From Clostridium brassicae (GTDB lineage: Bacteria > Bacillota > Clostridia > Clostridiales > Clostridiaceae): a stretch of DNA of 64,000 bases. The stretch lies in the NCBI RefSeq assembly GCF_026738875.1, contig NZ_JAPQFJ010000006.1:62001-126000 (forward strand), read 5' to 3'. How positions within the stretch are numbered: the first letter of the stretch is position 1; each line of letters starts with the position of its first letter. The notes beneath the pieces were generated by a model. The model had not been told where the DNA came from. It did not search any database and was given only the letters and a program-made list of their open reading frames with translations. The translations under genes and the position numbers were made by a program. Below are positions 6,591 to 28,306 of the stretch, piece after piece.

Positions 6591-7288
6591 ATTTAGTAAC
6601 CATATCAGGGCCTCCTTCTTCAGGAAAGACTTCTGTAATATTAAAAACCATAGAAGCTGTTAAAAAGAGAGGCTTAAAAATAGGAGTAGTTAAGTTTGAT
6701 TGTCTGTATACAGATGATGATATTTTATATAAAAAAGCCGGAATACCGGTTAAAAAAGGATTATCAGGTTCATTATGTCCAGATCATTATTTTGCAAGTA
6801 ACATAGAAGAAGTTGTTAATTGGGGAATAAAAGAAAAACTAGATTTACTTATAACTGAAAGTGCTGGATTGTGTAATAGATGCTCTCCTTATATAAAAGG
6901 TATAAAAGCAATATGTGTTATAGATAATTTAAGTGGTATAAATACGCCAAAGAAAATAGGACCTATGCTAAAAACTGCTGACATTATAGTTATAACAAAA
7001 GGTGATATTGTATCTCAGGCTGAAAGAGAGGTTTTTGCTTCTAGAGTCAATTCAGTAAATCCTCAAGCAATAATTATCTTTGTCAATGGGCTTACAGGAC
7101 AAGGTGCTTTTGAACTTAGTACTCTTATGTATGATAAAGAGTTAAATATTGAAACTGTTAAGGGACGAGAATTAAAATTCCCAATGCCATCTGCACTATG
7201 CTCATATTGCTTAGGAGAAACAAGAATAGGAGAAGAATATCAAATGGGTAATATAAGAAAGATGAAAATAGGTGATGACAATGATTAG
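6587..7288 (+). CDS. HypB/CobW-like SIMIBI GTPase, 233 aa
   Basis: The P-loop GPPSSGKTS (residues 7-15), an ESAG switch segment near residue 90 and a TKGD base-recognition motif near residue 145 mark a G3E/HypB-like GTPase, a class that works in metal insertion and metalloenzyme maturation. Several Cys pairs could bind metal: LCP, LCNRC right after the switch, and CSYC near the C-terminus. The ATG overlaps the previous stop (ATGA) and the stop lies inside the next gene, so the three genes are tightly coupled. Local enzymes that could be clients are the two hybrid cluster proteins; this is inference. Confidence 0.75.
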   Translation: MNLVTISGPPSSGKTSVILKTIEAVKKRGLKIGVVKFDCLYTDDDILYKKAGIPVKKGLSGSLCPDHYFASNIEEVVNWGIKEKLDLLITESAGLCNRCSPYIKGIKAICVIDNLSGINTPKKIGPMLKTADIIVITKGDIVSQAEREVFASRVNSVNPQAIIIFVNGLTGQGAFELSTLMYDKELNIETVKGRELKFPMPSALCSYCLGETRIGEEYQMGNIRKMKIGDDND

Positions 7289-11306: not shown

Positions 11307-11439
11307 TTAGGACTACTAAAGGAAGTTTACACTAGGTTGTGTACACTCTTTTAAAACAAAGCCAAATAAATCAATGATCAACTCTAGGGTTATTTCAATA
11401 AAATTATAAAATATGAAATTTAAAAAGGGGAGTTATATT

Positions 11440-12219
11440 GTGATTAGTCGAAGAAAATTATTAGAAGTCCAAAGCTTACAAAAAAACTATGGAAAGCATA
11501 ATAACATAACCAAAGCTATACAAGGGATTAGTTTTGACGTTTTTTCAGGGGAGTTTTTAGGAATAATGGGGCCAAGTGGATCTGGAAAAACTACATTATT
11601 AAACTGCATTGCAACAATAATAAAACCAACATCTGGACGTATACTTTTAAACGGTAAAAACATAAGTGCTTTTGGAAGTAAAGATTTAGCTGAGTATCGT
11701 GGTAGTCGAATTGGATATTTGTTTCAAGACTTTGAATTACTTGATAACCTAACTGGACAAGAAAATATATTATTACCATTATCTATTCATGGGGTAGATT
11801 TTGCAAAAGCACAAGCTAAATTAGATGAGTTAGCAAGTTTTTTAGAAATTACAGATATTCTTAATAAATTCCCATCTCAAATGTCTGGGGGACAGAAGCA
11901 AAGGGTATCTTTTGCACGTAGTTTGATTTTTGATCCAGATATCGTTCTTGCAGATGAACCTACAGGAGCATTGGATACACGCTCTGCAAGGGTTTTAATG
12001 AATAAGCTAGAAGGTATTAATAGAAGTAGGGAAAGAACTATATTAATGGTTACCCATGATCCTAATGCAGCAAGCTTTTGCTCAAGAATCCTTTTTATTC
12101 AAGATGGGGTAATATTTCATGAACTGCGCTGCAAACAAGATGAGTCTCGTGAGAAGTTTTATGAAAGAATTTTAAAGTTATTGTCTCAGTTTGGAGGAGG
12201 AAGTGCAAATGTTCTATAG
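11440..12219 (+). CDS. Bce-type antimicrobial peptide ABC transporter, ATPase subunit, 259 aa
   Basis: ATP-binding subunit with Walker A GPSGSGKT, Q-loop, signature MSGGQKQRVSFAR, Walker B VLADEPTGALD and switch VTHD. The HNNITKAIQGISFDVFSGEF start and the following FtsX-like permease and two-component genes place it in the BceAB/peptide-7-exporter group, which frees membrane targets from bacitracin-like peptides. GTG 11440 is chosen because AAAAAGGGG lies nine bases upstream; the ATG at 11413 lacks a site. Arg is often CGT/CGC here, unlike AGA-rich neighbours, which may mark transfer. First gene of a four-gene module. Confidence 0.85.
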   Translation: MISRRKLLEVQSLQKNYGKHNNITKAIQGISFDVFSGEFLGIMGPSGSGKTTLLNCIATIIKPTSGRILLNGKNISAFGSKDLAEYRGSRIGYLFQDFELLDNLTGQENILLPLSIHGVDFAKAQAKLDELASFLEITDILNKFPSQMSGGQKQRVSFARSLIFDPDIVLADEPTGALDTRSARVLMNKLEGINRSRERTILMVTHDPNAASFCSRILFIQDGVIFHELRCKQDESREKFYERILKLLSQFGGGSANVL

Positions 12220-14380: not shown

Positions 14381-14474
14381 GCGCATTAAAATAAATAACA
14401 AGTCAAAGAGGCTACGGATATTTTGTTAATATGACTAAAGAACTATTAAATTTTACATGGAAGGAGGTGCTGAA

Positions 14475-15152
14475 GTGGCTAGGATTACAATTGTTGAAGA
14501 TGATTTATTCATGAGAGAAGAATTAATGGATGTATTGAAAAAAGCTGGTTATGAAGTAACAGCAATTTCAGACTTCCATGATGTGGTTGCTCAAATAGCT
14601 GCTTTGACACCCGGTTTAGTATTGTTAGACATTAATTTACCAGAACAATCAGGATTTGAAGTATGCAAAAATTTAAAATTAAAAGGGATTGGTCCAATAT
14701 TGATTCTTACATCTAGAGATAAGTTAAAAGATGAATTACACGGTCTTAATTTAGGTGCAGATGATTATCTCACAAAACCATGTAATCGAGATAGATTATT
14801 AGCACGTATTCAGAACCTTCTAAGAAGATTTGAAGGACAACCACAATTGATAGATGTTGGCAGTTTTTTGCTAGATCCCAATACTTTTACTTTGTATAAG
14901 GGATCTGAATCCTTATTATTATCAGCTAATGAAGGAAGAATTTTATTGGCTTTAGTACAGAATAGACCTGAGATTGTATCCAAATCAACACTGAGTGAAC
15001 TTTTATGGGGAATGGACCAATATATAGACGAAAATGCACTTCAGGTGAATATCACTCGCTTACGAAAAACATTGCGTCAATTGAATTTAGATCATCAAAT
15101 AGAAACAATAAGGGGTAAAGGGTATAGACTTAGGGGGTATATGAAGCCATGA
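14475..15152 (+). CDS. OmpR-family response regulator (BceR-like), 225 aa
   Basis: Receiver domain with acidic pocket VEDD, phospho-acceptor Asp in LVLLDINLPEQSG, Thr in ILTSRD and Lys in LTKPCN, followed by a winged-helix DNA-binding domain (about 130-222, ENALQVNITRLRKTL and IRGKGYRL). GTG 14475 follows AAGGAGG; the upstream ATG 14457 would put that site inside the gene. It overlaps the kinase by 4 bases. By analogy with Bce modules it should activate the transporter genes upstream. Confidence 0.85.
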   Translation: MARITIVEDDLFMREELMDVLKKAGYEVTAISDFHDVVAQIAALTPGLVLLDINLPEQSGFEVCKNLKLKGIGPILILTSRDKLKDELHGLNLGADDYLTKPCNRDRLLARIQNLLRRFEGQPQLIDVGSFLLDPNTFTLYKGSESLLLSANEGRILLALVQNRPEIVSKSTLSELLWGMDQYIDENALQVNITRLRKTLRQLNLDHQIETIRGKGYRLRGYMKP

Positions 15153-16186
15153 AATGGATAAAGCAAATATATGATTGTTTTCATGCTTATAAACAATGGT
15201 TTCTTATGTTGATAGCTACCAGTATCCTATTTAGTTTTTTAGCTTGGCTGGCTTATCCAGAAACATTTAAGGTGCTAGTAGGATTAATGATTATTTTTAC
15301 TCTAGCAATGATATGGGTGTCTGTATTTATTATAATTAGAAAGCAAAAAATAATAGAAGAAGCTTTTGAAGATTTTTTATTAGAAGCAAGTGAGACAAAT
15401 GAAGAAATATTATGCCATGTATCTCCTAAGAATCATTGGGAGTTTATCCATAGGGTGGGGAACGTTATAAGATCATATCAATCGGAGCTTAATGATCAAG
15501 TCATTGAATTGGGCGATTATGAAAATTATATAGAGGGATGGGTTCATGAAATTAAAAAGCCTCTATCATTAATGACATTGGTATTGGATAATCGTACTGA
15601 TGAAATGTCTCCCCTTGTTAGACAGCGTATGCTACATATTAGAGATCAAATGCTTGGAGATGTAGAGCAAATTTTGTATTTTGCAAGACTTGGGGCTATT
15701 CATAAAGATTATATTTTTGATTCTATAAACTTACTAGCATTTTGTAAACAAACAATTGAAGACCATCAAACATTACTAGACGAATCTAGTTTTCAAATAC
15801 AATTTATAGGTGAAGAAATGGAAGTTTTTTCTGACCGCAAAGGATTAGCTTTTATATTAGAACAAATAATCACTAATAGTACGAAACACATTTCACAGAA
15901 TCAGGATATTCCAATTTTGAAGTTTGAAACGCTTTATGACAAAGTGAGAGATAAAGTTATCTTAAATATTAGTGATAATGGACCTGGTGTATCTCAAGAA
16001 GATTTACCATTTATTTTCGATAAGGGCTTTACTGGAAGAAGAGGTACTTATACTAGACAAGCAACAGGCATGGGACTTTTCTTAGTAAGCAAGATGGCTT
16101 ATGATTTAGCAATTCAGTTGGATGCAAAATCAGATTTAGGCTCAGGGTTGATTATATCGCTAATATTTCCAAATGTGAAACGATAA
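15149..16186 (+). CDS. Intramembrane-sensing histidine kinase (BceS-like), 345 aa
   Basis: Two membrane helices near the N-terminus (about 15-60) with almost no extracellular loop are the hallmark of intramembrane-sensing kinases, which read the transporter rather than the drug. The phospho-acceptor His sits in WVHEIKKPLS; the ATPase domain shows N-box ITNSTKH, G-box DNGPGV and GMGLFLVSKMA. The ATG overlaps the regulator stop. Last gene of the module. Confidence 0.85.
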   Translation: MKWIKQIYDCFHAYKQWFLMLIATSILFSFLAWLAYPETFKVLVGLMIIFTLAMIWVSVFIIIRKQKIIEEAFEDFLLEASETNEEILCHVSPKNHWEFIHRVGNVIRSYQSELNDQVIELGDYENYIEGWVHEIKKPLSLMTLVLDNRTDEMSPLVRQRMLHIRDQMLGDVEQILYFARLGAIHKDYIFDSINLLAFCKQTIEDHQTLLDESSFQIQFIGEEMEVFSDRKGLAFILEQIITNSTKHISQNQDIPILKFETLYDKVRDKVILNISDNGPGVSQEDLPFIFDKGFTGRRGTYTRQATGMGLFLVSKMAYDLAIQLDAKSDLGSGLIISLIFPNVKR

Positions 16187-16652: not shown

Positions 16653-16692
16653 TAATAGCTAATGTTTCAAGTAAGAAACATTAGCTATTTTT
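16653..16692 (+). terminator. Strong hairpin terminator
   Basis: Perfect 15-bp stem AATAGCTAATGTTTC / GAAACATTAGCTATT with a 7-base loop and a T-run. It may serve the Bce module or the lost gene before it. Confidence 0.75.
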
Positions 16693-16702
16693 GTATAAAG
16701 AA

Positions 16703-16866
16703 TACCACAGGCTATGCCTGTGGTTGAAGAAAGCTTACAGCTATGAGTAGAAAAAAATAAAACCTTTGATGTGAAATGGAAGTAGGTTTGTCGACCACAC
16801 CCATTAAATAAAGGAGGTATATCTAATATGGATAATAGTAGTTTACCACAAGGAAGGTTAAATTAG
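16703..16866 (+). mobile_element. IS200/IS605-family left-end remnant with 5' stub of tnpA
   Basis: A subterminal hairpin CCACAGGC-tat-GCCTGTGG (16705-16723) is followed about 100 bases later by AAAGGAGG and an ATG opening MDNSSLPQGRLN, which then hits TAG at 16864. Hairpin, long leader and MDNSSL start match my memory of clostridial IS200 tnpA left ends, where the protein would continue as the Y1 transposase. Only the first residues remain. The alternative is a genuine 12-aa leader peptide upstream of agr. Confidence 0.45.
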
Positions 16867-16999
16867 TTTTATATCACTTTTGGTTACTAATTACATATAT
16901 GGGAATGCAATAAAGATTTTACTTAATTTTAACGAGAATATTAATGTAGAGTATAAAAAAGACATTACATACAAAGTTTGAAATTAAGGGGATGGTTAT

Positions 17000-17725
17000 A
17001 TGTTTAGAATAGCTGTGTGTGACGATGAAAAATATTTTTTAAGTACTTTAGAAAATTTTTTATGTAAGTATCTAAATAAACATGAAATACAGTATGAAAT
17101 AGACACTTTTAAATCAGGAATGGAATTTTTAGAATTAGGGATTGATATGGTTAAATATACTGTTATATTTTTAGATATAAATATGGATGAGATAGATGGT
17201 ATTATGACTGCTCAAAAAGTTCGAGAATTTAGCAAGGAAGTATTTATTGTATTTGTCACTGCATATATTAATTATACTCTTGAAGGTTACAAAGTAGATG
17301 CAGTAAGATATTTATTAAAAAGTAATGAAAATTTTGAAGAAGTAATTAATGAGTGTATGGATGCAATTGTTGAGAAGATGAATTATGCGATTATAAAAAA
17401 GGTATTTAAATTTAGCCAGGGAGTTAAGGAAATTCGTTTAGATAGAATTCTATATATTGAAAGTAGATTACATAAGTTACAATTCCATATTATGCAAGAC
17501 AAAGTAAGGATTTATACATTATATGGAACTTTAAACAAAATAGAAAATGAATTAGAAGGCAATGGATTTGTTCGAATACATCAGAGTTTTTTAGTTAACA
17601 TAAAGCATATAATGAGTATTTCAGGAAATTCAGTTATATTGAGTAATGGTGTAAAGTTAAGTATATCTAAATCAAGATACAAAGGTGTAAAAAAAATATT
17701 TATTGAGTATATAGGAGAAATATAA
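17000..17725 (+). CDS. agrA: AgrA-like response regulator with LytTR domain, 241 aa
   Basis: The receiver domain has VCDDE, phospho-acceptor Asp in IIFLDINMDEIDG, and VTAY; the LytTR DNA-binding domain spans about 140-238 (IRLDRILYIES, GTLNKIENEL, GFVRIHQSFLVNI). This is the AgrA architecture that activates agr genes once the peptide signal is sensed. It is preceded by AAGGGGATG. Its stop overlaps the ATG of the kinase (TAATG). Gene order A-C-B-D differs from the staphylococcal B-D-C-A order. Confidence 0.85.
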   Translation: MFRIAVCDDEKYFLSTLENFLCKYLNKHEIQYEIDTFKSGMEFLELGIDMVKYTVIFLDINMDEIDGIMTAQKVREFSKEVFIVFVTAYINYTLEGYKVDAVRYLLKSNENFEEVINECMDAIVEKMNYAIIKKVFKFSQGVKEIRLDRILYIESRLHKLQFHIMQDKVRIYTLYGTLNKIENELEGNGFVRIHQSFLVNIKHIMSISGNSVILSNGVKLSISKSRYKGVKKIFIEYIGEI

Positions 17726-19026
17726 TGTTTGTTTATATACAAAGTTTTTTAATTATTGTTCTAGAAATCTTTTGTTGCAAAATATTTTTTGAGGCTTTTG
17801 GAGAAAAACGTACTGAAAAGAATATTTATAGAAATTACGGAATAATAGCAACACTAATGTTATCAGTATATTTTTTTGCATTATTTTTTGCAAATTATTT
17901 TACGTTCAAACAGGTATCAATTATTGTTGTAAGTACAATATTAATGTATTTATATCTAAATATTAATATTATAAAATCATTGATAGTATCTATGTTATTC
18001 CAGGGATTACTTCTTGTTGTAGATTATTTTGCATTTTCAATAAATACTATGTCTTTATTTAATGGTGAGACAGCAGGGCAAGCTTATATTTTTGAAAGCT
18101 TTTTAGTTATTATTTTTGGAAAAGCACTACTTTTTTTTGTTGTTATAGTTATAAAGAAGAATATAGGCAATAAATATCCAACAATTTTGAAAGATACTGA
18201 ATGGATAAGGTTTATATTTTTCCCATTATTTACAATTTGTGTGATAATAGCGATACTTTCAATATCTGATTGTGTTACCAGTAAAAAACAGGCAGATATT
18301 TTTTTTATTATAGCATTTGGACTAGCTGGAATGAATATAGTGGTATTTTACTTAATTAATGATATATTAGAACGTGAAATGAAAATACATAAAAATAAGA
18401 TTTTTGAAATGCAAGTAAAAAGTCAGACAAATATGTATCTTTCTATTTCAGAAAATTTTAATAAGCAAAATAAAAAAACCCATGAATATAAAAATCAAAT
18501 AATATGTATTAATTCTTTGGTAAAGAAAAAACACTATACAGAACTGGAAGAATATTTAAAAAATATAAGTGACAATTTAAATAAGGAGCTAGACGCAATT
18601 AATACAAATAATGTTATTGTTAATGCTATTTTAAACACAAAATATCAAGAAGCAATAAATAAAAATATTATTTTTGTACTTAAAGTTAACGACCTATCTA
18701 ATATAAAAATTAGTAATGAAGATGTTGTTGTAATATTATCTAATTTGTTAGATAATGCCATTGAAGCCTGTGAAAAATGTTCAGATAATAAAATATTAAA
18801 ATTTAAATTTATAAATAAGGATGATTTTATTGTTATATCAGTAAAAAATACATATACCAATAATATTTTATATAGTAATGGAAGAGTATTAACTTCAAAA
18901 GAAAACAAAGAAGAGCATGGTGTAGGAATAAGTAATGTAGTAAATATAATAGAAAAATATGGTGGATCTTATATTATAAAGAGTAATGGAAATGAGTTCT
19001 ATTTTTCAATTCTAATTTCCCAATAA
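17725..19026 (+). CDS. agrC: AgrC-like GHKL histidine kinase, 433 aa
   Basis: The N-terminal half (about 1-215) has six or so membrane helices forming the peptide receptor. A coiled linker leads to the phospho-acceptor His in THEYKNQI, and the GHKL ATPase shows LLDNAIEACEKC and EEHGVGISNV. Family knowledge: AgrC binds the autoinducing thiolactone and phosphorylates AgrA. It is coupled to agrA by overlapping stop/start and is followed by about 130 bp containing the agrB promoter. Confidence 0.85.
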   Translation: MFVYIQSFLIIVLEIFCCKIFFEAFGEKRTEKNIYRNYGIIATLMLSVYFFALFFANYFTFKQVSIIVVSTILMYLYLNINIIKSLIVSMLFQGLLLVVDYFAFSINTMSLFNGETAGQAYIFESFLVIIFGKALLFFVVIVIKKNIGNKYPTILKDTEWIRFIFFPLFTICVIIAILSISDCVTSKKQADIFFIIAFGLAGMNIVVFYLINDILEREMKIHKNKIFEMQVKSQTNMYLSISENFNKQNKKTHEYKNQIICINSLVKKKHYTELEEYLKNISDNLNKELDAINTNNVIVNAILNTKYQEAINKNIIFVLKVNDLSNIKISNEDVVVILSNLLDNAIEACEKCSDNKILKFKFINKDDFIVISVKNTYTNNILYSNGRVLTSKENKEEHGVGISNVVNIIEKYGGSYIIKSNGNEFYFSILISQ

Positions 19027-19155
19027 TACATAATAAACAGCAATTTGCATTATATGAGTTAATATTTATCCATTTCTGCAATAAAAAGTCATTTTATGCA
19101 ATGGGTATTGTATACAAAAAATTAAAAGTTATACTAATATTAGAAGGTGTGATTT

Positions 19156-19749
19156 ATGATTGAGAAAATGACAAATGATTTAGTAAAACAGATGTCTAAT
19201 GAAAAATTAATTGATGTAAAAAAAGAGAAGGATTATGTTTATGCTTTTACATGTATGATAGAAAAAATTTTAACTTTAGGAACTATTATAATAATTAGTA
19301 TATGTTTAAATTTATTTATAAATACTTTGATTTTTCTTATATTTTTTCTTTCATTAAGAAAGAGGACAGGTGGCTATCACGCTAATACATTTTTACAATG
19401 TTATTTGGGCACAGTCAGCACTTATATGTTAATTGTATTTGTAGATAATTTCTTATTAAGAAATTTTAGGAGTTTAGAAGTTTTTCTTATAATATCTATT
19501 GTTATCATATGGATGATAGGAACAATTAATCATCCTAATATGAATATGAATTCTTATGAATTATTAGAATCTAAGAAAGCTGCAAGACTTATTCTTATGT
19601 TGGAAAGTGGGATAATATATTTTTCGATTTTTGCTGGTGTAAATCCAATTAGTATAAACTACATGTCAATTTCTATTATATTATGTGCAGTTTTACTTTT
19701 AATAGCAAAAATATTAAATCAGGAGGTAAAAAAATATGAAGAAGGTTAA
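19156..19749 (+). CDS. agrB: AgrB-like membrane cysteine endopeptidase, 197 aa
   Basis: A polytopic membrane protein with the AgrB signature RKRTGGYHANTFLQC; His75 and Cys82 correspond to the catalytic His77/Cys84 of staphylococcal AgrB. It removes the C-terminal tail of AgrD and forms the thiolactone. GAAGGTG precedes the ATG. The stop overlaps the downstream agrD start by 14 bases, strongly linking enzyme and substrate. Confidence 0.88.
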   Translation: MIEKMTNDLVKQMSNEKLIDVKKEKDYVYAFTCMIEKILTLGTIIIISICLNLFINTLIFLIFFLSLRKRTGGYHANTFLQCYLGTVSTYMLIVFVDNFLLRNFRSLEVFLIISIVIIWMIGTINHPNMNMNSYELLESKKAARLILMLESGIIYFSIFAGVNPISINYMSISIILCAVLLLIAKILNQEVKKYEEG

Positions 19750-19867
19750 CAAGTATTTACTAAAAATAGTTGAACGTATTACAAGAGTTGAGGTAGATAA
19801 AAATTCACGTACATGGCCACCATTTTGCTCTGGTATTTATCATCAACCTAAGAGACCTCAAAAGTAA
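19736..19867 (+). CDS. agrD: AgrD autoinducing-peptide precursor, 43 aa
   Basis: AGGAGG stands seven bases before the ATG, inside agrB. The peptide has a basic amphipathic N-terminus (MKKVNKYLLKIVERI), a middle segment with a single Cys31, and the charged proline-rich tail HQPKRPQK. The C-S-G-I-Y block followed by HQP closely parallels Clostridium perfringens AgrD, where a five-residue ring precedes HQPEEP. I infer a thiolactone ring of CSGIY (Cys31 to Tyr35) with an N-terminal extension of unknown length. Too short for ordinary gene calling. Confidence 0.85.
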   Translation: MKKVNKYLLKIVERITRVEVDKNSRTWPPFCSGIYHQPKRPQK

Positions 19868-19939
19868 TGAGACAATTATCATAAGATTTTAATTATGTCT
19901 ATGTTTAAGAAAGATACTATAGGAAGTGAGGATATATTT

Positions 19940-20539
19940 ATGGAAATTATGCCAGTATATAGTATGGATGGTATGAGGTCTGCAAATAGCATACAAAAAT
20001 TTGCAAACCACAGCACTCAATTTAGTAATATACTTAATAAAGAAATTAGTGAGCAATCTACATATAGTATTCAAAATGAGCTTATAAGTAAATATAATGC
20101 AAATCTGCATGTATGTTCCTTTGATTCTTATAATCATATGATGAATTCTATAGATAGTAATTCATTAAATAATGTAATAATCTCAAATGAAACACTTGAA
20201 AAAATGGGCAAAGATGCAAAGTTTAAAGATAAAATTTGTAAAATTATTAATGATAATTGTAGTACAGAAGCTCAGAAGGAATTAAGAAGTCTTGCTCCAC
20301 CAGTTAAAAGTTCAGGTGTTGTTATATATCCTGATGGAACATATATCTGCTGGGTAGAGAGTGTTTATAGTAAAAATGATATAGATAAAGACAAAGTAGA
20401 GAAAGAAACAGAAAATCTTCTTACAACTTCCTTTGATAGAATTTGGAAACCAACTAATAATCAATATATTAATTTGCCTAATGTTATTAATGTACAAGCA
20501 GTAGGACATACCAAACGTAAAAAGAATCAAGAAGATTAG
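19940..20539 (+). CDS. DUF6033-like protein of unknown function, 199 aa
   Basis: The N-terminal 50 residues are Ser/Asn-rich and unstructured-looking. The C-terminal half resembles DUF6033 proteins of clostridia: NVIISNETLEKMGKDAKFKDKI and GVVIYPDGT. No signal peptide or membrane segment. The ATG at 19940 is preferred over 19895 because AGGAAGTGAGG lies before it. It sits between agrD and the Cys-rich precursor gene and should be co-transcribed with one or both, so a role in the peptide system or in its regulation is possible but unproven. Confidence 0.6.
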   Translation: MEIMPVYSMDGMRSANSIQKFANHSTQFSNILNKEISEQSTYSIQNELISKYNANLHVCSFDSYNHMMNSIDSNSLNNVIISNETLEKMGKDAKFKDKICKIINDNCSTEAQKELRSLAPPVKSSGVVIYPDGTYICWVESVYSKNDIDKDKVEKETENLLTTSFDRIWKPTNNQYINLPNVINVQAVGHTKRKKNQED

Positions 20540-20590
20540 CTATATGCTAATTTTAATTGATAAATATTTTGATGAAGGGGGGTAAATAAA

Positions 20591-20749
20591 ATGAAAAAGT
20601 TAAATAAAAAGAATCATAATTTACAGGGTACATTGGAATCTTATTCTTGCAACTGCCCTACTAGCTGCTATTGCAATACACAAGCTAAGAAAAATTCTAA
20701 TTATGTAGAATTAGTTAGATTTTCTTATTCCTACATTGTATTAGGATAA
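20591..20749 (+). CDS. Cys-rich modified-peptide precursor, CLI_3235 family-like, 52 aa
   Basis: An AAGGGGGG site precedes ATG 20591. The N-terminal leader (MKKLNKKNHNLQGTLESY, 1-18) is basic and lacks Cys; the following segment S-C-N-C-P-T-S-C-Y-C has four Cys (20, 22, 26, 28), then a polar and aromatic tail. This matches the TIGR04065/CLI_3235 type of clostridial precursor: a conserved leader ending in GT-x-E-x-Y-x-C, encoded just before a radical SAM maturase. The modification probably targets the Cys block; the final product and activity are unknown. Followed by a terminator at 20757. Confidence 0.85.
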   Translation: MKKLNKKNHNLQGTLESYSCNCPTSCYCNTQAKKNSNYVELVRFSYSYIVLG

Positions 20750-20756
20750 AATGTAT

Positions 20757-20826
20757 AAAAAGATGTTTCTGATGGCTGTTATAAATATATGTTTAATAAT
20801 GAGCTATTAAAGAAACATCTTTTTTT
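20757..20826 (+). terminator. Terminator/attenuator between precursor and maturase genes
   Basis: AAAAGATGTTTCT pairs with AGAAACATCT followed by TTTTTT across a loop of about 40 bases. Partial termination here would give many more precursor transcripts than enzyme transcripts, as expected for ribosomal peptide clusters. Confidence 0.75.
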
Positions 20827-20844
20827 CAAAAGGAGAGACTATAT

Positions 20845-22239
20845 ATGAGAAATACAATAATTCATTTATTTGAAACCCATGGACATTATTATTTATATGA
20901 TGTAAATGTTAACGATATTGTAGAGATAAATAATAAGGCATATTGTGATTTAATGGATAATAATTATGAAAATAATAAAGATATAAAAAAATTAATAGAG
21001 CAAGGATTTCTAATGCAAAGAAGAGAATTTATTATGCAGCATCCGTTAGATAAACAATTAGAAGGCTTACTAAAAAGAAATTTAAAAAGTATGACATTAC
21101 AGGTAACAAAAAACTGTAATTTAAGATGTAAATATTGTGTATATTCGGGAACTTATACAAACAGAACACATAAAAATGAGAGAATGTCAGAAACTATTGC
21201 ATATAAGTCAATAGACTTTTTCTTAGAACATGCAATAGATTCAGAATATCTTAATTTAGGTTTTTATGGAGGAGAGCCAATACTTGAATTTGATTTAATA
21301 AAGAAATGTATTGAATATATGGAAAATAATAAAGGTGACAAAACTGTGACTTATAGTATGACGACAAATGCAACATTACTGACTAAAGAAATGATAGAAT
21401 TTCTAAATAAATATAGTGTAGAATTGACAATTAGCTTGGATGGGCCAAAAGACATACATAATTTAAATCGAATAAGTGCAGATGAAAAGGTAGGAAGCTT
21501 CAACAAAGTAATAAATTCCATACAATTAGTTGAAAAAGAATGTCCAGAATATTCAAAATTCATTAATTTTAATGCAGTTATGACACCAGAATATGGATTT
21601 GAAATATATAATAAGTTTTTTTGTGAGGATGATTTAATTAAACATTATGTATCAGTTGTAAATTTACCAAGTAATAATTATGCAAAAAATAAATATACGC
21701 TTAATGAGGAATTTATTGAAGAATTTAATTATGAGCTTTTTAAATATTATTTTTCTACAATTAGAAATGATGCAGATATTAAGGTGTCTAAACTACTTAA
21801 AATGCATTATCAAAGATTACATGATGATATTCATGAAGGATTAAAAATTTCTACAGATAATTTGAAAATTGAACACCCATCAGGGCCTTGTGTAGTTGGG
21901 AGGCATAGGTTGTTTGTGGAAACAGGAGGAGATTTTTATCCTTGTGAGAGGGTAAGTGAGTGTTCAGAAATTATGAAAATAGGAAATATTTATAGAGGAT
22001 TCGATTTAACTAATATTAGGAACATGCTTAATATAGGTAAGATAACTGAAGAAAAGTGTAGGAATTGTTGGGCTTTTAGATTTTGTACAATTTGTGCAGT
22101 TAAAGCTGATGGAGGGGATAAATTGTCAGCAGAAATGAAAGCTAGCCATTGCGAAGAAATAAAACGTAGTGTAGATGATAGAATGAAAGATTATTGTATG
22201 TTTAAAGAAATGGGATATGATTTTGAAAAGGAGAATTAA
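20845..22239 (+). CDS. Radical SAM/SPASM peptide maturase (CcpM-like), 464 aa
   Basis: Residues 1-80 look like a peptide-recognition (RRE-type) region. The radical SAM motif is C91-x3-C95-x2-C98, then GFYGGEP and the TTNATLL strand. The C-terminal SPASM region has further Cys residues (PCVVG, YPCERVSEC, CRNCWAFRFCTICAVKADGG) for auxiliary clusters. It uses S-adenosylmethionine to modify the adjacent Cys-rich precursor; thioether formation is typical of SPASM maturases, but the bond is not known here. AAAGGAGAG precedes the ATG. The TIGR04068 assignment is from memory of the family. Confidence 0.88.
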   Translation: MRNTIIHLFETHGHYYLYDVNVNDIVEINNKAYCDLMDNNYENNKDIKKLIEQGFLMQRREFIMQHPLDKQLEGLLKRNLKSMTLQVTKNCNLRCKYCVYSGTYTNRTHKNERMSETIAYKSIDFFLEHAIDSEYLNLGFYGGEPILEFDLIKKCIEYMENNKGDKTVTYSMTTNATLLTKEMIEFLNKYSVELTISLDGPKDIHNLNRISADEKVGSFNKVINSIQLVEKECPEYSKFINFNAVMTPEYGFEIYNKFFCEDDLIKHYVSVVNLPSNNYAKNKYTLNEEFIEEFNYELFKYYFSTIRNDADIKVSKLLKMHYQRLHDDIHEGLKISTDNLKIEHPSGPCVVGRHRLFVETGGDFYPCERVSECSEIMKIGNIYRGFDLTNIRNMLNIGKITEEKCRNCWAFRFCTICAVKADGGDKLSAEMKASHCEEIKRSVDDRMKDYCMFKEMGYDFEKEN

Positions 22240-22243
22240 TAGT

Positions 22244-23335
22244 ATGATTAAAAGAAAAGCAATTTTGTTTCCATATAATATTGACAATTATCCGTTAATT
22301 AGATTTAAAGAGCTACTTTCTCAGGTTGATATCATCAATATTGATACAAGAAATAATAAATTTTTATTAGGAAAGGATTTTGCTGAATTATATATGGGAG
22401 AAAGTACTGGAGGGTTAGTACAAAAAGTAGAAACTAATGATTATGATATTCTTATTATAGGTGATGGCAATCCATTAACAAATGAAACGTATATATATAA
22501 TAAAGTAGAAAATGATGCTAAAAGTGGTAAAGATATTATTTCATTATACATTCTACAAGATATACAGAGAGAAGAATTAAAGAGAATATGTAAAAAATAT
22601 TCTGTAGAAATAAAATTTTTAGATGGACAAAATGCGAATGTTGCTGAAATAGAGATTGATAATCAGAAATTATATCAGATGAATGTGCCAATAATATTAA
22701 TTACAGGTATTACGGAAAGAACTAAAAAAATAGATTCAGTGTTGGTACTAAAAGAAGAATTTGAAAAAAAAGGATATAAAGTTAGTGTGATAGGGAGTAA
22801 AAGTTACAGTGAATTATTTGGGATTCATTCATTTCCTCAATTTATGTTTGACAATATATTAGAAGAACATAAAATTTTATACTTTAATTCATTGTGTAAG
22901 AATATTGAATATTATGAAAGACCAGATGCATTCATTATCGCAATACCAGGAAGTTTGATTCCATATAACGATATGTTTACAAATCACTTTGGGATAACTG
23001 CGTTTGAAGTAGGACAAGCAGTTCCACCAGATGCTGTTATTGTGAATATAGGGTATGGAGAGTATGATAAAAACTTTTTTGAAAATATATCTAATATGGT
23101 TAAATATAAAATTGGAGAAAATCCTACTTGTTATGTAATGTCTAATTCACTTGTTGATATTAATAGTAGTAAAGAAGAAGGTAAAATGCAATATTATAAT
23201 GTAGATATGTACGAGATTGATAAAAAAATTAAGTTAATGAATTTAACTATTGACAAACCAATTTTTAATGGATTAAGGAATAGTGATTTAAAGAATATGT
23301 CTGATACTTTATTAAACTTATTGGAATCTAATTAA
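22244..23335 (+). CDS. Peptide maturation system protein, TIGR04066-like, 363 aa
   Basis: A soluble protein of alternating strands and helices. Two halves are visible: about 1-150 with YDILIIGDGNPL, and about 150-363 with PIILITGITERTKKIDSVLVLKEEFEKKGYKV, resembling a nucleotide- or substrate-binding Rossmann-like domain, followed by IAIPGSLIPY and GITAFEVGQAVPPDAVIVNIG. It fits the TIGR04066 family known only from these clusters; the reaction is undefined. ATG 22244 with AAGGAG at 22228 is chosen over 22217, which lies inside the maturase gene. Confidence 0.75.
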   Translation: MIKRKAILFPYNIDNYPLIRFKELLSQVDIINIDTRNNKFLLGKDFAELYMGESTGGLVQKVETNDYDILIIGDGNPLTNETYIYNKVENDAKSGKDIISLYILQDIQREELKRICKKYSVEIKFLDGQNANVAEIEIDNQKLYQMNVPIILITGITERTKKIDSVLVLKEEFEKKGYKVSVIGSKSYSELFGIHSFPQFMFDNILEEHKILYFNSLCKNIEYYERPDAFIIAIPGSLIPYNDMFTNHFGITAFEVGQAVPPDAVIVNIGYGEYDKNFFENISNMVKYKIGENPTCYVMSNSLVDINSSKEEGKMQYYNVDMYEIDKKIKLMNLTIDKPIFNGLRNSDLKNMSDTLLNLLESN

Positions 23336-23358
23336 ATTATGTAAAGTAGAGGTGGAAT

Positions 23359-23622
23359 ATGGATAAAAAGACTGTAATTTATGAAGAGATAAAAGATATA
23401 ATGAAAAAAGAATTTAATATTATAGTACATGATAAAACTTTTTTTAGTGAAAATATATTTGGATCAAAAATCAAATTAATGCCAAGAGATTTGATTTATT
23501 TACTTAAAATTATTGAAAAGAAATACAATTTTCATATTTTGGGTAGAGATATTGAGAAGTATAAATTAAGAACTTTTGAAAATATTGTTGATTTGTTATT
23601 AGAAAAAGATTTAATGCTGTGA
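23359..23622 (+). CDS. Acyl-carrier-related protein of the peptide maturation system, 87 aa
   Basis: Size, charge and helix pattern resemble an acyl carrier protein (KNIFGSKIKLMPRDLIYLLKIIEKKYNF region), but the canonical DSL motif with the phosphopantetheine Ser is replaced by MPRDL, so carrier function in the usual sense is doubtful. It matches the ACP-related family seen next to radical SAM maturases in clostridia. AGAGGTGG precedes the ATG, 23 bases after the previous gene. Confidence 0.72.
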   Translation: MDKKTVIYEEIKDIMKKEFNIIVHDKTFFSENIFGSKIKLMPRDLIYLLKIIEKKYNFHILGRDIEKYKLRTFENIVDLLLEKDLML

Positions 23623-23677
23623 TTGTAAGCTCTTTATGAAATTAAATAAATATTTTAAGTTTGGAGTTGTTAAAAAA

Positions 23678-25120
23678 ATGGAGTCCAAAATTAGAATTGC
23701 TATTATAGATAATGGAATAGATTCAGTACTATTAAAGGATAATATTGAAAATAACATATATGTAAATAATACTGGCATAACTATAAGTGAAAAAAATAAT
23801 ATCAATAAACAACAATTTCAACATGGAACAATATGTGCATTAATTATTAGAAAGTATTGTCCTATGTGTGACTTAACTAGTATTCGCTTATTAGATTGTA
23901 AAGGGAAAGGCAGAGTTAGTAATTTAGAGGCGGCATTACAATGGTGTCAAGATAATAATATTAAAATTGTTAATTTGAGTTTTGGAACAACACATTTTGC
24001 TGATAAAAGAAAAATACAAAAAATTATCAATTATTTTGCAAACAGAGATATGATTTTAATTTCTGCGACTTCTAATGATGGATATGTAACATATCCTGCA
24101 TCATTTTCAAAAGTAATAGGTGTAGATTCAGGGAATAGTTTTGAATTTAATAGGAAAATGTTATTAAAAAAAGGTATAGAAATTGAGTGCCTATCTGAAC
24201 ATGAAATTGTGTTGAATAATTGCAATATTTTAACACCAAGAAGTAGTAGTTATGCTGCACCATATGTTACTGCAAAAATAGGAAATATTTTTTTATTGCA
24301 AGAAATTCTTAATAAGAAGCTCTTGCTTAAAGAGTTGGATAAAGAAAATTTTAATATAAATAGTAGCTATGAATTAATATTTGAACCAGATTGGATATCT
24401 AAAGCATGGATAGCTGATTTTCAAAATAAATCTGCATCAAAATATTATTTTGATGTCATCACAGGTGATTATGAAAAAATTAAAGAAAAAATTGATACTA
24501 TTATTGTAAAGTCAAAAATTGCATTAAATGGTTTAGATTTAAAAGGTAAAAACATAGTATATTTGGGTGAAAAAAATTTATCTACATCAAATATTGATGG
24601 GTACGTTTGGACTAAAAAAAATAGAATAGAACAAATTGAGGAAATAGGTAAAAATAGATATGTAATAGATATACCTCTTATTCTGTTCAAAATACATAAT
24701 GAAATTGACGAATATGAGTGGTTAAATAAATTAAATATTAATTTTGGTAAAGACAATTATAATGCATATGTAGCAAGCTTTCATGAAGAAAGTATTTTAT
24801 ATGGTTTAGAATATATTCCACGAGAAGTTTTAGTAAAAGGGGCAAATGAAATTCTATATAATTTCTTAGGGTCGCAAATATATTATTTAAAAAGTGATGT
24901 GATAGTAATTTCTATAGGAAATGAATTTTATACTGATGAATCATTTATACAATGGGATATGTTAATTAATATTGAAAAATATAAGGGTAAAGTGAATGTG
25001 TGTATTGTTTGCGGTGAATATGAAGAATATAATTTGCAATATGATAGTATAGATTCAACAATTATTTATGATGTCTACCGAAATATTATAAAAGGCTTTT
25101 CGGAGGGGAAAAATGTCTGA
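23678..25120 (+). CDS. Subtilisin-like (S8) protease of the peptide cluster, 480 aa
   Basis: The catalytic triad is visible: Asp in IAIIDNGID, His in FQHGTICA, and Ser in RSSSYAAP. No signal peptide is present, so it should act in the cytoplasm, fitting leader removal before or during export. The C-terminal 250 residues are not recognised and may bind substrate or the exporter. ATG 23678 is preferred (GGAG upstream and only a few residues before the first strand); 23636 is an in-frame alternative with no clear site. It overlaps the exporter gene by 8 bases. Confidence 0.78.
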   Translation: MESKIRIAIIDNGIDSVLLKDNIENNIYVNNTGITISEKNNINKQQFQHGTICALIIRKYCPMCDLTSIRLLDCKGKGRVSNLEAALQWCQDNNIKIVNLSFGTTHFADKRKIQKIINYFANRDMILISATSNDGYVTYPASFSKVIGVDSGNSFEFNRKMLLKKGIEIECLSEHEIVLNNCNILTPRSSSYAAPYVTAKIGNIFLLQEILNKKLLLKELDKENFNINSSYELIFEPDWISKAWIADFQNKSASKYYFDVITGDYEKIKEKIDTIIVKSKIALNGLDLKGKNIVYLGEKNLSTSNIDGYVWTKKNRIEQIEEIGKNRYVIDIPLILFKIHNEIDEYEWLNKLNINFGKDNYNAYVASFHEESILYGLEYIPREVLVKGANEILYNFLGSQIYYLKSDVIVISIGNEFYTDESFIQWDMLINIEKYKGKVNVCIVCGEYEEYNLQYDSIDSTIIYDVYRNIIKGFSEGKNV

Positions 25121-26816
25121 TAAAGAGATAATTAAAAAATTATTAAAACTTTTAGAAAAATATAAAAAGATAATAATTTTTATATTTTTATGTTTAATGA
25201 TTTCAACTGCGTTGAATCTTTGTATACCGTTAATCAGTAAACATATTATGGATGATGGTTTTATAGGTGGAGATAAGAATTTAGTAATTATTTTAGCGCT
25301 GTCTATGACAGGAATTTATTTTGTAAGTTATGTTCTTGATATAATGAAAGAAAAAGCAAGAATTGAAATAGCTGCTAAAATTCAATATTCTTTATCAGAG
25401 GAATCATTTTTTCATCTAATGAAAATTAATAGTAAGTATTTTACAAGTATCAATTATGCTGAAATTTTAAATAATATTAATTTTGATATTAATACTATAG
25501 CATCAATAGCAGATGGAAATTTGTTTTTTGTATTGACACAGGGGTTTAGTATGTTAGGTGGAATTATTGGATTATTTATAATAGATTATAGAATGGCTAT
25601 TATGGTTTTAATTTTCATTCCATTAAAATATATAGTTATGAAATCTCTTGCAAAAAAAAGAAAATTTTTAATGGACAATTATATTGAAAGTAGCCAGATG
25701 TATGCTAATTGGTTTGGCGATTCAGTTGGTGGGATAAATGAAATAAAAATATTTAATTTATTATTGTATAAGTGGAGAGAGTTTTCAACCTTACAAAAAA
25801 GAATTATAGATAAGCATAAGAAAATGGATATGCTTGGGCAATGGAATACAATAATAGACAAAATGATTATTCAAATTCTCATAATGTTTATCTATATTAT
25901 AGGAGCTAATCTAGTATTTAATATGGAACTTTCAGTGGGAAGTGTTTTTGCATTTATAACATATAGTGCATATGTTACAGGACCTATTTCCGCAATTTTA
26001 AACGTAGGTTATTTTTTATCTGGAATTATACCATCGACCAAAAGATATTATGAGTTTTTGAACTTTGAAGAAGAAAGTAATATTGGGTATGAAAATAAGC
26101 CAGACAATGGAGATATAGCATTTAAAAACGTTTCATTTCAGTATGAAAAAGAGAAAAATGTCCTAAAAAATGTTGATTTTGTGTTCAGAAAAGGGATGAA
26201 ATATGCGTTGATTGGTAAGAATGGTTCTGGTAAGTCAACTATGATAAATCTAATAACAAGGATACTTGAACCAACGAATGGATATATTGAGATTAATGAT
26301 GTGGATATTACTAAATATAAAATATATTTATATAGAGACATGATATCTGGTGTAAGTCAACAAGTATATTTGTTTAATGACACTATACGAAATAATATTT
26401 GCTTATACAAGGAAGTTAACGAATCTATTCTATTAAAGGCAATTCAAGATAGTGGATTAGAAGATTTCATTAATGAAGTCTCTTTAGAATATGTAGTTGG
26501 TCAGAATGGTTCTATGTTGTCAGGAGGACAGAAACAAAAAATTGCTATGGCAAGAGCATTAGTTCACGATAAACCTATTATTATTTTTGATGAAGCAACT
26601 TCTAATATGGATGCATATACAGATAAACAGATAAATTCGCTTATTAATACTAGCTTAAAAGGTAAAACAGTAATAGTAGTAACTCATAAGCAAGAGATAT
26701 TAAAAGATGTTGATAATATTGTTATGTTAGATAATGGTAACATATATGAAGGGGATTATGAGGAGTTAAACATGACGAGTGCTATTTTTAGAGAAATGAT
26801 CAATATAAGAGGGTAA
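25113..26816 (+). CDS. ABC exporter, fused membrane and ATPase domains, 567 aa
   Basis: Six membrane helices in residues 1-310, then an ATPase domain with GKNGSGKST, LSGGQKQKIAMAR, IIIFDEATSNMD and VTHK. It lacks an N-terminal C39 peptidase domain, consistent with the separate S8 protease performing cleavage. It most likely exports the mature Cys-rich peptide. Last gene of the cluster; a terminator follows. Confidence 0.85.
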   Translation: MSDKEIIKKLLKLLEKYKKIIIFIFLCLMISTALNLCIPLISKHIMDDGFIGGDKNLVIILALSMTGIYFVSYVLDIMKEKARIEIAAKIQYSLSEESFFHLMKINSKYFTSINYAEILNNINFDINTIASIADGNLFFVLTQGFSMLGGIIGLFIIDYRMAIMVLIFIPLKYIVMKSLAKKRKFLMDNYIESSQMYANWFGDSVGGINEIKIFNLLLYKWREFSTLQKRIIDKHKKMDMLGQWNTIIDKMIIQILIMFIYIIGANLVFNMELSVGSVFAFITYSAYVTGPISAILNVGYFLSGIIPSTKRYYEFLNFEEESNIGYENKPDNGDIAFKNVSFQYEKEKNVLKNVDFVFRKGMKYALIGKNGSGKSTMINLITRILEPTNGYIEINDVDITKYKIYLYRDMISGVSQQVYLFNDTIRNNICLYKEVNESILLKAIQDSGLEDFINEVSLEYVVGQNGSMLSGGQKQKIAMARALVHDKPIIIFDEATSNMDAYTDKQINSLINTSLKGKTVIVVTHKQEILKDVDNIVMLDNGNIYEGDYEELNMTSAIFREMINIRG

Positions 26817-26875
26817 ATAGTTTTTATAATTCTTATTTGTGAATGTATGAAGAAAGATGCTGTTGTGCGGTAAAT

Positions 26876-26943
26876 AAAAAACCGCTAATTTAGCAATATT
26901 ATATTATTTTGCGCAGATTTAATTGTAACTATACTGCGGTTTT
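26876..26943 (+). terminator. Probable terminator of the peptide cluster
   Basis: AAAAACCGC and GCGGTTTT pair around a long AT-rich loop containing smaller hairpins. Confidence 0.45.
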
Positions 26944-27016
26944 GAATAATCAAAGCTGTCGTATTTTTTTATTGAAAATTTCGAAGGCATAATCAATGAG
27001 AAAATGAATTTTGTAG

Positions 27017-27647: not shown

Positions 27648-27997
27648 ATGAAAACAAATTTAAATAATTTTTTATGTAAATTACCCTTGGGTAATCGCTT
27701 TTTTTGTTTTAGGAAAAATATACATAATGATTAAATTTAAATAGTATAGGGTAAAAAATGGGTAAAAAATTGAAATATCAAAAAACGTTATGGCTAAACA
27801 AAAATAAATAGATATGGAGTGATGACAATAAATGAATCAAGATCTAAAAACGAATGGTTTGGAAAAAAATATAACATAATTATTTTAAAATATAACTTAC
27901 AATTCAATTTGTAAAAAATAAAATAAAATGTTATATTATCTAGTGGTTCATTATTTTAGAATCTATAAAATTGAATCCAAAGCCTAGCTTTATAATA

Positions 27998-28230
27998 AAT
28001 AGGATTCTTGTCTTCAGATGGAGTTTTAAACTCCACCTGAAGATTATTAACAGAATTCTTAGGAGTTTTACTCCTTAGAAGTTGTTATCCTTTAGGGTAA
28101 ACCATTATCCAGGGTCGTAGCGCCACTTATCTCCAACCTATAGAAAAGCAGAGAACCCAAATCTCTGATTTGGTGTGAATCGCTTTCACAGAGTGTATTG
28201 GAGTATTAGTGGCGGTAGACATCGGATAAA
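27998..28230 (+). repeat. Structured repeat element, copy 1 (full form)
   Basis: About 230 bp with three hairpins: 28012-28042 (CTTCAG ... CTGAAG with GGAG/CTCC), 28056-28080 (TTCTTAGGAG / CTCCTTAGAA), and a large one pairing 28121-28136 (CGCCACT...CTCCAA) with 28198-28214 (TTGGAG...AGTGGCG). It ends in AGACATCGGATAAA. Parts recur at 41869-41892 and, reversed, at 62637-62722, so it is a mobile or amplified element rather than a unique leader. It has no ORF. Confidence 0.7.
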
Positions 28231-28306
28231 AAATTAAAATTTAAATTTGAAATATGAGGGGAGGAATGTCTAAGCTTTTCTAGGCTTTTATTAGGCAAGA
28301 AAGAAT

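What the first reader, a model, noticed from the sequence alone, without database searches (positions are those of the whole stretch)
17000..26816. Agr quorum-sensing locus placed directly upstream of a Cys-rich radical-SAM peptide cluster
Seen: agrA-agrC-agrB-agrD is followed after about 70 bases by a DUF6033-like gene and then precursor, radical SAM maturase, TIGR04066-like protein, ACP-related protein, S8 protease and ABC exporter, all on one strand. Known: CLI_3235-type clusters are defined in silico and the product is uncharacterised; agr controls toxins and sporulation in clostridia. Inferred: the modified peptide is made in response to the Agr signal, or the two peptides form one signalling system.
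Basis: partly seen in the sequence, partly recalled or inferred. Interest (0 to 1): 0.88.

Follow-up and report, generated by a model that had tools for sequence, protein, structure and literature searches.

The report
Agr switch beside modified-peptide gene cluster
A cell-counting signal system sits next to genes for a chemically modified peptide, and matching control sequences in relatives suggest that the signal turns the peptide genes on, a prediction that can be tested directly.

Summary
The genes are as described: agrA-agrC-agrB-agrD, a DUF6033 gene, a CLI_3235-type precursor, CcpM radical SAM maturase, TIGR04066, an ACP-like protein, S8 protease and ABC exporter, on one strand. The agrD-DUF6033 gap is 27 bp, not 70.

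The neighbourhood recurs: 10 of 112 distinct CcpM genes, window included, have agrB on the same strand within 7 kb, in four gene orders; in two loci agrBD lies inside the cluster. Most CcpM genes lack Agr nearby, and this Agr type often lacks CcpM.

New evidence: a tandem 14-bp box, 20-21 bp apart, next to a promoter-like sequence, precedes agrB in 13 relatives and also 9 RiPP operons and 2 S8-ABC gene pairs. The window has one, weaker copy (19068-19101), 54 bp before agrB: its genome's only match with at most one mismatch to a fixed pattern.

Best reading: AgrA activates agrBD and, here by read-through, the RiPP cluster. A single two-peptide signal is unsupported. DUF6033 follows the RiPP clade, not Agr. 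Nothing was tested experimentally.

The parts
17000..17725 (+). agrA, response regulator with LytTR DNA-binding domain
   Evidence: PF00072 54.0 bits, PF04397 70.2 bits
17725..19026 (+). agrC, sensor kinase with GHKL ATPase
   Evidence: PF14501 96.6 bits
19068..19101 (+). putative AgrA site: two direct repeats, 20 bp apart (CATTTCTGCAA / CATTTTATGCAA)
   Evidence: 19.9 bits with a matrix made from non-window loci; 0.017 expected per 64 kb; only match with at most 1 mismatch to a fixed pattern in the 4.1-Mb genome
19108..19135 (+). putative agrB promoter: -35 TTGTAT, 16-nt spacer, -10 TATACT
   Evidence: read from the sequence; similar layout after the box in relatives; not among the sites shown by the consensus scan
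19156..19749 (+). agrB, membrane peptidase
   Evidence: PF04647 116.9 bits; His75 and Cys82 invariant in 7 sequences, window included
19736..19867 (+). agrD, 43-aa autoinducer precursor; predicted thiolactone ring Cys31-Ser-Gly-Ile-Tyr35 before HQPKRP
   Evidence: TIGR04223 25.8 bits; C31 and HQPK-P invariant in 11 sequences; ring inferred
19895..20539 (+). DUF6033 protein, function unknown, companion of this RiPP clade
   Evidence: PF19498 41.4 bits; clade distribution
20591..20749 (+). 52-aa precursor peptide with Cys20, 22, 26, 28
   Evidence: TIGR04065 35.8 bits
20757..20824 (+). hairpin with T-run between precursor and ccpM, probably a partial terminator
   Evidence: -24.3 kcal/mol, z -5.2
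20845..22239 (+). ccpM, radical SAM/SPASM peptide maturase
   Evidence: TIGR04068 545.9 bits; Cys 91/95/98 (CX3CX2C) invariant in 17 rows
22217..23335 (+). TIGR04066 maturation-system protein with DUF1611/DgcN-like fold
   Evidence: 280.6 bits; model pLDDT 87.5, best PDB match 2obn, E 1.1e-12
23359..23622 (+). acyl-carrier-related protein
   Evidence: TIGR04069 44.4 bits, below the cut-off of 70
23636..25120 (+). S8 (subtilisin-like) protease, candidate leader peptidase
   Evidence: PF00082 48.7 bits
25113..26816 (+). ABC exporter, one polypeptide, no peptidase domain listed
   Evidence: PF00664, PF00005
26936..26959 (+). terminator-like hairpin after the ABC gene

Best explanation
This is a quorum-sensing-controlled RiPP cluster. 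AgrB is expected to cut and cyclise AgrD into a five-residue thiolactone (Cys-Ser-Gly-Ile-Tyr, inferred). The signal is expected to activate AgrC and then AgrA (inferred from the families). AgrA binds the tandem box at 19068-19101 and activates the promoter at 19108-19135 (inferred from the conserved box and promoter layout). In the window that promoter drives agrBD and, by read-through across gaps of 27 and 51 bp, DUF6033, the precursor and probably the maturation and export genes. In 9 of the 12 other box-type clusters the RiPP operon has its own copy of the box. CcpM then puts thioether links on the Cys-rich precursor, S8 removes the leader and the ABC protein exports it (inferred from the families). 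The secreted product is most likely an antimicrobial or competition peptide made at high cell density (inferred).
For: Gene identities. Recurrent same-strand linkage: 10 of 112 distinct CcpM genes, with agrACBD upstream (window, L054, L060, L061, L073, L189), agrBD inside the cluster (L066, L094), agr downstream (L246) and a different Agr lineage downstream (L062). In 200 genomes of one family 3 of 11 CcpM genomes also have this AgrB, all within 10 kb, but only one of the three (G1507) is independent of how I chose the sample and the profiles. CcpM and AgrB trees need at least 5 and 3 changes of linkage on well supported branches. The box: 61 pairs at 22 bits or more (56 without the duplicate L244) against 0 in reversed sequence over 158 loci; before agrB in 13 loci, agrA in 4, 9 RiPP operons, 2 S8 genes; similar promoter layout, window included. 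No stable fold between agrD and DUF6033 in the window (z 0.14).
Against: No expression or binding data. The window's box is weaker (19.9 bits) than those of relatives (23.7-44.7), and none lies directly before its precursor. A small hairpin after DUF6033 (about 20532-20554, z -1.7) could reduce read-through into the precursor. 102 of 112 CcpM genes lack same-strand agrB within 7 kb, and this Agr type often lacks CcpM. Two of 15 relatives with this agrB (L247, L252) have no box pair before it; L062, though linked, has none. L054 and L061 have hairpins between agrD and the next gene (by eye). The 79 loci were chosen by likeness to the window's CcpM. Nine of the 13 agrB boxes trained the matrix, and the motif was first seen by eye also before the RiPP operons of L060, L066, L094 and L246. 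The co-occurrence in 200 genomes is not significant once the two non-independent genomes are left out (1 shared genome, probability 0.28 before distance is considered).
Confidence: 0.75

Rival explanations
1. The Agr system and the RiPP cluster are neighbours by chance, or were only carried together on one mobile block; Agr regulates other genes.
For: Both modules occur apart. The 17-26.8 kb block is lower in G+C (23-28% per kb) than the upstream flank (31-33%; the downstream flank is mixed, 25-35%), and a dispersed repeat lies just downstream, so joint transfer is plausible. The box in relatives also precedes genes unrelated to the RiPP.
Against: Different gene orders in different lineages keep the pair together, and the box precedes RiPP operons themselves.
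Confidence: 0.18
2. The two peptides are one signalling system: the CcpM product is itself a signal, or AgrB or AgrC acts on it.
For: agrBD lies inside the cluster in L066 and L094; SCIFF ranthipeptides have been reported to take part in clostridial quorum sensing (title seen in the reference list of PMC11352710; paper not read).
Against: None of the 20 precursors compared shows the HQPK-P tail of AgrD (by eye). Most CcpM genes have no agrB nearby. Each of the 16 agrB genes of this type, window included, has its own AgrD.
Confidence: 0.05
3. The S8 protease and ABC exporter serve AgrD (N-terminal trimming or export of the autoinducer) as well as the RiPP; this can hold together with the best explanation.
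For: agrBD is directly followed by S8-ABC in L066 and L094; S8-ABC has its own box in L071 and L073; nine box-type loci share one ABC subtype (637-745 bits; apart from L083 and L093 the next loci reach 529).
Against: S8 and ABC also occur in Agr-free CcpM clusters. The ABC subtype also occurs in L083 and L093 (684 and 710 bits) without agrBD in the stretch, and Agr-linked L062 has another subtype (443). The seven A3-type agr stretches without CcpM show no S8 hit.
Confidence: 0.15

Closest known systems
CLI_3235-type RiPP clusters (TIGR04065 precursor / TIGR04068 CcpM / TIGR04066 / TIGR04069)
   Same: Precursor, CcpM and TIGR04066 above the curated cut-offs; S8 and ABC companions present as in many relatives.
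   Different: A dedicated Agr module and an AgrA-type box; DUF6033 companion; ACP-like protein below the TIGR04069 cut-off.
agr-CA_C0082 locus of Clostridium acetobutylicum (PMC10301443; passages seen)
   Same: A gene of a RiPP-maturase family lies next to agr and its expression is controlled by Agr.
   Different: CA_C0082 is a LanM-like protein that lacks conserved catalytic residues and the rest of a biosynthetic set, and is needed for granulose formation; here a complete radical-SAM cluster with precursor and exporter.
Staphylococcus aureus agr P2/P3 (PMC4227749; passages seen)
   Same: A LytTR regulator with paired direct repeats immediately upstream of the promoters of the agr locus.
   Different: Gene order A-C-B-D; no RNAIII shown in the window; target is a RiPP cluster; repeat sequence not compared letter by letter.
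Quorum-sensed bacteriocin clusters such as nisin or plantaricin (recalled, not read)
   Same: Peptide antibiotic production tied to a secreted peptide signal and a two-component system.
   Different: Here the signal is a separate Agr thiolactone, not the bacteriocin or a linear pheromone.

Membership tests
Agr quorum-sensing system | AgrB peptidase next to AgrD with Cys ring and conserved tail | tested here: met
   PF04647 116.9 bits and TIGR04223 25.8 bits; H75 and C82 invariant in 7 sequences; C31 and HQPK-P invariant in 11. NCBIfam's AgrB-like equivalog was not reached (29.1 against 282)
Agr quorum-sensing system | AgrC GHKL kinase and AgrA LytTR regulator in the same locus | tested here: met
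Agr quorum-sensing system | Autoinducer made, sensed and self-induced | not testable with these tools
   needs experiments; box at the agrB promoter is consistent
CLI_3235/CcpM RiPP system | TIGR04065 precursor, TIGR04068 maturase and TIGR04066 above cut-off | tested here: met
   35.8, 545.9 and 280.6 bits
CLI_3235/CcpM RiPP system | TIGR04069 ACP-related protein above cut-off (companion, not the defining part) | tested here: not met
   44.4 bits against 70; position and profile match agree
Sactipeptide or ranthipeptide | Thioether cross-links from Cys to backbone carbons | not testable with these tools
   inferred from radical SAM/SPASM maturase and N-terminal Cys cluster with Cys-free C-terminal part
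AgrA (LytTR) regulon | Paired direct repeats upstream of the promoters of agr and target genes | tested here: met
   before agrB in 13 of 15 relatives of this type and, more weakly, in the window; before RiPP operons in 9 cases. Binding itself not tested
AgrA (LytTR) regulon | Box directly upstream of the window's own precursor operon | tested here: not met
   the only + strand pair above 12.4 bits in the window is before agrB; control would be by read-through

The most novel reading that the evidence does not exclude
In gut Lachnospiraceae an AgrA box marks a compact quorum-sensing island (agr, CcpM RiPP operons, S8-ABC, small proteins that look secreted, and an Agr-box-driven non-coding RNA of about 145 nt seen in 4 loci that could be an RNAIII-like effector). 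The window is a stripped-down, transferred copy of that island in which one Agr promoter drives the whole RiPP cluster.
Probability: 0.3. Interest if true: 0.8.

Novelty: new variant of a known kind. Interest (0 to 1): 0.62.

Why it matters
CLI_3235-type peptides are defined by sequence models and named bacteriocins; I found no paper that says when they are made. An explicit AgrA-type box ties one branch of them to a cyclic-peptide quorum signal, predicts the signal ring for each locus, and suggests a way to induce silent clusters (add the autoinducer) in gut commensals. The box may also let the Agr regulon of Lachnospiraceae be read from sequence.

Tried and rejected
Rfam scan of the window and of five relatives: no match at gathering thresholds. 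First genome-contig scan with the window's CcpM alone: no relative confirmed; repeated with an alignment. Plasmid origin: no near match; CcpM in plasmids 4 records, all under 60% identity. DUF6033 structure: mean pLDDT 68.5, no PDB match with E at or below 0.001, so no function is claimed. RNA model of the relatives' small RNA (R1): the window scores 23.9 bits at 26862-26974, but L066 gets 24.5 bits at 6562-6692, overlapping the end of agrC, so the window match is unproved. Other box-like pairs in the window (42023, 42046, 30583, minus strand; up to 19.7 bits) lie far from the cluster and were not followed up. Two further own-genome pattern matches with 2 mismatches (C12, C23) were inspected and not taken as sites; the 23 matches with 3 mismatches were not inspected one by one. 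DUF6033 as part of Agr: rejected. Co-occurrence statistics (0.009 for 3 shared genomes): withdrawn as the main figure, because G368 was the centre of the sample, chosen for its CcpM, and G1394 is the genome of L073, which supplied rows to both profiles; without them 1 genome is shared of 198 (7 with AgrB, 9 with CcpM), probability 0.28, or about 0.001 with the requirement of lying within 10 kb. Confidence was lowered from 0.78 to 0.75 for that reason, and that of the chance-neighbour rival raised from 0.15 to 0.18.

Literature: no paper linking Agr with CcpM/CLI_3235 clusters, and none naming DUF6033, was found (open-licence PMC only;'s 46 papers 20 were listed). PMC7343975, PMC10731318 and PMC4573289 were seen in search listings only; PMC11352710 and PMC13289728 in passages: they predict autoinducers and ranthipeptides in the same genome or collection, and no link between the two was seen in those passages.
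Full report
OBSERVATION. The order reported is right. On the + strand lie agrA (17000-17725), agrC (17725-19026), agrB (19156-19749), agrD (19736-19867), a DUF6033 gene (19895-20539), a 52-aa precursor (20591-20749), ccpM (20845-22239), a TIGR04066 gene (22217-23335), an ACP-related gene (23359-23622), an S8 protease (23636-25120) and an ABC exporter (25113-26816). Precursor, CcpM, TIGR04066 and AgrD pass NCBIfam cut-offs; the ACP-related protein does not (44.4 against 70 bits); AgrA, AgrC, AgrB, DUF6033, S8 and ABC are named from Pfam domains above their cut-offs. The agrD-DUF6033 gap is 27 bp. Terminator-like hairpins lie upstream (16654-16689) and downstream (26936-26959). Between precursor and ccpM is a strong hairpin with a T-run (z -5.2), a common way to make more precursor than enzyme (general knowledge).

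INTEGRITY. AgrB keeps His75 and Cys82, invariant in 7 sequences including the window's; that these are the catalytic pair is recalled from S. aureus AgrB. AgrD carries Cys31 followed by SGIY and the tail HQPKRP; C31 and HQPK-P are invariant in 11 sequences, so a CSGIY thiolactone is predicted. CcpM keeps Cys91/95/98, and further C-terminal cysteines are invariant in 17 rows. The precursor has Cys20, 22, 26, 28 followed by a Cys-free tail, a layout seen in all 20 precursors compared.

DISTRIBUTION. CcpM above its cut-off is rare: 12 of 194 genomes, the window's own included; in the genus only the window's genome of 8. With alignment A2 at E <= 1e-95: 16 of 391 genomes of the class, 13 of 206 of the family, 4 of 398 of the phylum, 26 of 394 of the family of G618 (each count but the last includes the window's genome; G618's family is, I infer from shared sequences, Paenibacillaceae). 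They were annotated with profiles grown from the window's proteins, as were the stretches that I fetched around other hits (of the 29 CcpM matches I fetched 10, plus G618's).

LINKAGE. Of 112 distinct CcpM genes (124 before removing 12 duplicates), 10 have agrB on the same strand within 7 kb (gaps): L189 593, window 1096, L066 1404, L054 1434, L094 1483, L061 1824, L060 1936, L062 5347, L246 6429, L073 6805. Only 76 of the 112 have 7 kb held on both sides, so some links may be missed. Other agrB genes in these stretches are on the other strand or farther off (L037, L043, L075, L128, L192 and second ones in L054 and L060; L051's CcpM-like gene is below the score limit). Gene orders differ: agrACBD upstream (window, L054, L060, L061, L073, L189; in L073 other genes lie between); agrAC upstream with agrBD between the ACP gene and S8 (L066, L094); agrACBD after the ABC gene (L246); and in L062 a different Agr lineage in the order A-C-D-B, with agrA overlapping the end of the ABC gene. 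In 200 genomes of the family of G368 (one per genus; Lachnospiraceae by inference), 11 have CcpM (E <= 1e-95), 9 the A3 type of AgrB (E <= 1e-40), 3 both, all within 10 kb. This sample is not independent: G368 was its centre, chosen for its CcpM, and G1394 is the genome of L073, whose proteins are in both profiles. Without these two, one genome (G1507) of 198 has both, 6.4 kb apart; the shared genome alone is not significant (0.28), with the distance about 0.001. Against linkage: 8 of the 11 CcpM genomes lack that AgrB type, and 7 of the 10 AgrB hits have no CcpM in the fetched stretch (L245 and L247 are short: 9,955 and 6,182 bases).

TREES. I labelled 14 CcpM rows: the ten above, the second clusters of L060 and L061, and L071 and L075, which carry the box described below but no A3-type agr in the fetched stretch. 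The label needs 7 changes on the tree; well supported branches force 5; shuffled labels need 13.4 on average, 0 of 500 as low (quick method, several long branches). Twelve of the 14 fall in one starred 21-row clade with the window; L189 and L062 do not. On the AgrB tree (26 rows), CcpM-adjacent AgrBs need 5 changes (3 forced), and L062's AgrB is in a separate branch, with long branches warned of. The link is therefore clustered but was probably made or broken more than once.

THE BOX. Upstream of agrB in relatives is a tandem repeat, consensus about [GT]CC[AG]TTTTCTGCAA twice, 20-21 bp apart; in the same output it was seen by eye before RiPP operons of L060, L066, L094 and L246. A matrix from 18 half-sites of nine non-window agrB upstream regions was run over 158 loci (2.79 Mb, some overlapping): 61 pairs at 22 bits or more (56 without L244, a duplicate of L073) against 0 in reversed sequence; 65 against 1 at 20 bits; 79 against 2 at 18 bits. 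Pairs of 23.4 bits or more occur in 17 loci: L054, L060, L061, L066, L071, L073 (= L244), L075, L094, L128, L189, L245, L246 and L248-L251; at 22 bits also L278 (23.1) and L202 (22.4). Of these 17, L071, L075 and L128 show no A3-type agr in the held stretch. Targets: agrB in 13 of 15 relatives with this type (not L247, L252; four, L248-L251, outside the training set), start codon 51-65 bases after the box's last base (55 in the window); agrA in 4 loci (L054, L066, L073, L250); the first gene of 9 RiPP operons, none in the training set (L060 twice, L061, L066, L094, L071, L073, L075, L246); S8 in L071 and, in L073; several genes whose products look secreted; and some places without an evident gene. 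Of the 13 labelled clusters other than L062, 9 have their own box and the other 4 (window, L054, first cluster of L061, L189) lie directly downstream of agrBD. Most boxes shown are followed by a -35-like TTG within about 6 nt and a -10-like hexamer (27 sites). In S. aureus AgrA binds two direct repeats immediately upstream of P2 and P3 (PMC4227749, passages), so position and form fit an AgrA site. Whole-genome check with a fixed-20-bp pattern in 12 chosen genomes: matches with at most 1 mismatch in 4 of 6 genomes with this AgrB type and in 0 of 6 without; at 2 mismatches all 12 have matches, so that level says nothing. The two misses (G368, G1458) have 21-bp boxes before agrB.

THE WINDOW'S SITE. 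At 19068-19101, with 54 bases between it and agrB, a pair 20 bp apart scores 19.9 bits; random sequence of the same dinucleotide make-up gave 1 such pair in 60 simulated windows (0.017 per 64 kb). In the 4.1-Mb genome it is the only match with at most one mismatch among 26 with up to three; the backward control pattern gave 8 with up to three. The promoter-like sequence behind it (TTGTAT, 16 nt, TATACT) has the layout of its relatives. It is weaker than theirs and the only good site in the region.

OTHER PARTS. DUF6033-like proteins were found in 20 of the 21 rows of the window's CcpM clade (the exception, L128, has no upstream sequence in the stored stretch) and in no other of the 158 loci at E <= 0.01, Agr-free members of the clade included. 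Two subfamilies are joined only by iterated profiles; Pfam's own DUF6033 model passed its cut-off in 2 of 10 neighbours tested (L054 and one in L061; L066 reached only 13.6 bits against 25). DUF6033 therefore goes with the RiPP clade. The TIGR04066 model (pLDDT 87.5) resembles DUF1611 proteins and the N-acetyltransferase DgcN (2obn E 1.1e-12, 7xrj E 3e-9); its role is unknown.

KNOWN OR NEW. Agr next to a maturase-like gene is known: in several clostridia LanM-like genes lie immediately downstream of agr, and CA_C0082 is Agr-controlled (PMC10301443, passages). An Agr system tied to a complete CcpM cluster through a shared box was not found in the searches listed under Tried and rejected. I call it a new variant of a known kind, quorum-sensed peptide clusters.

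LIMITS. No transcript, binding or product was measured. The box-AgrA link is inferred from co-distribution and position. Product activity (antimicrobial) is inferred from the family name only.

Noticed in passing
L054:16140-16360, L061:14518-14735, L073:13683-13905, L128:2970-3190: An Agr box followed by a conserved stretch of about 145 nt without an evident gene, ending in a hairpin (T-run clear in L054 and L061, weaker in L128, absent in L073); 82-88% identical to L054 over about 560 bp: a possible Agr-driven small RNA (RNAIII-like). 0 of 32 predicted pairs covary; no Rfam match.
   Followed up: partly
26862-26974: Weak match (23.9 bits) of the window to the model of that RNA, right after the ABC gene; a match of similar score at the end of agrC in L066 shows that it may be chance.
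   Followed up: partly
27990-28240: Dispersed repeat of about 240 bp: 43 matches in the genome, this copy included, many partial, just downstream of the cluster.
   Followed up: partly
16690-16880: By eye and from recall, the left end of an IS200/IS605-like element with a truncated transposase start, between a terminator and agrA; single copy in the genome.
   Followed up: partly
11413-16186: ABC ATPase, FtsX permease, response regulator and kinase in a row: looks like a Bce-type peptide-sensing and detoxification module upstream of the cluster; label recalled.
   Followed up: no
L071:4988, L073:15747 and 17040, L075:6794, L094:1970, 3922 and 17007, L054:2582, L245:6757: Agr boxes also precede other genes, several with what look like signal peptides, suggesting a wider Agr regulon.
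   Followed up: no
L252:198-11820: An agrBD of the same type is followed by an ACP-like gene, two weak ABC matches and genes that by eye look like ligases: perhaps another Agr-linked biosynthetic cluster.
   Followed up: no
L202:6081-7633, L278:12588-14139: In relatives of the window's CcpM without agrBD, an AgrC/AgrA-like pair stands divergently next to the ABC gene.
   Followed up: no
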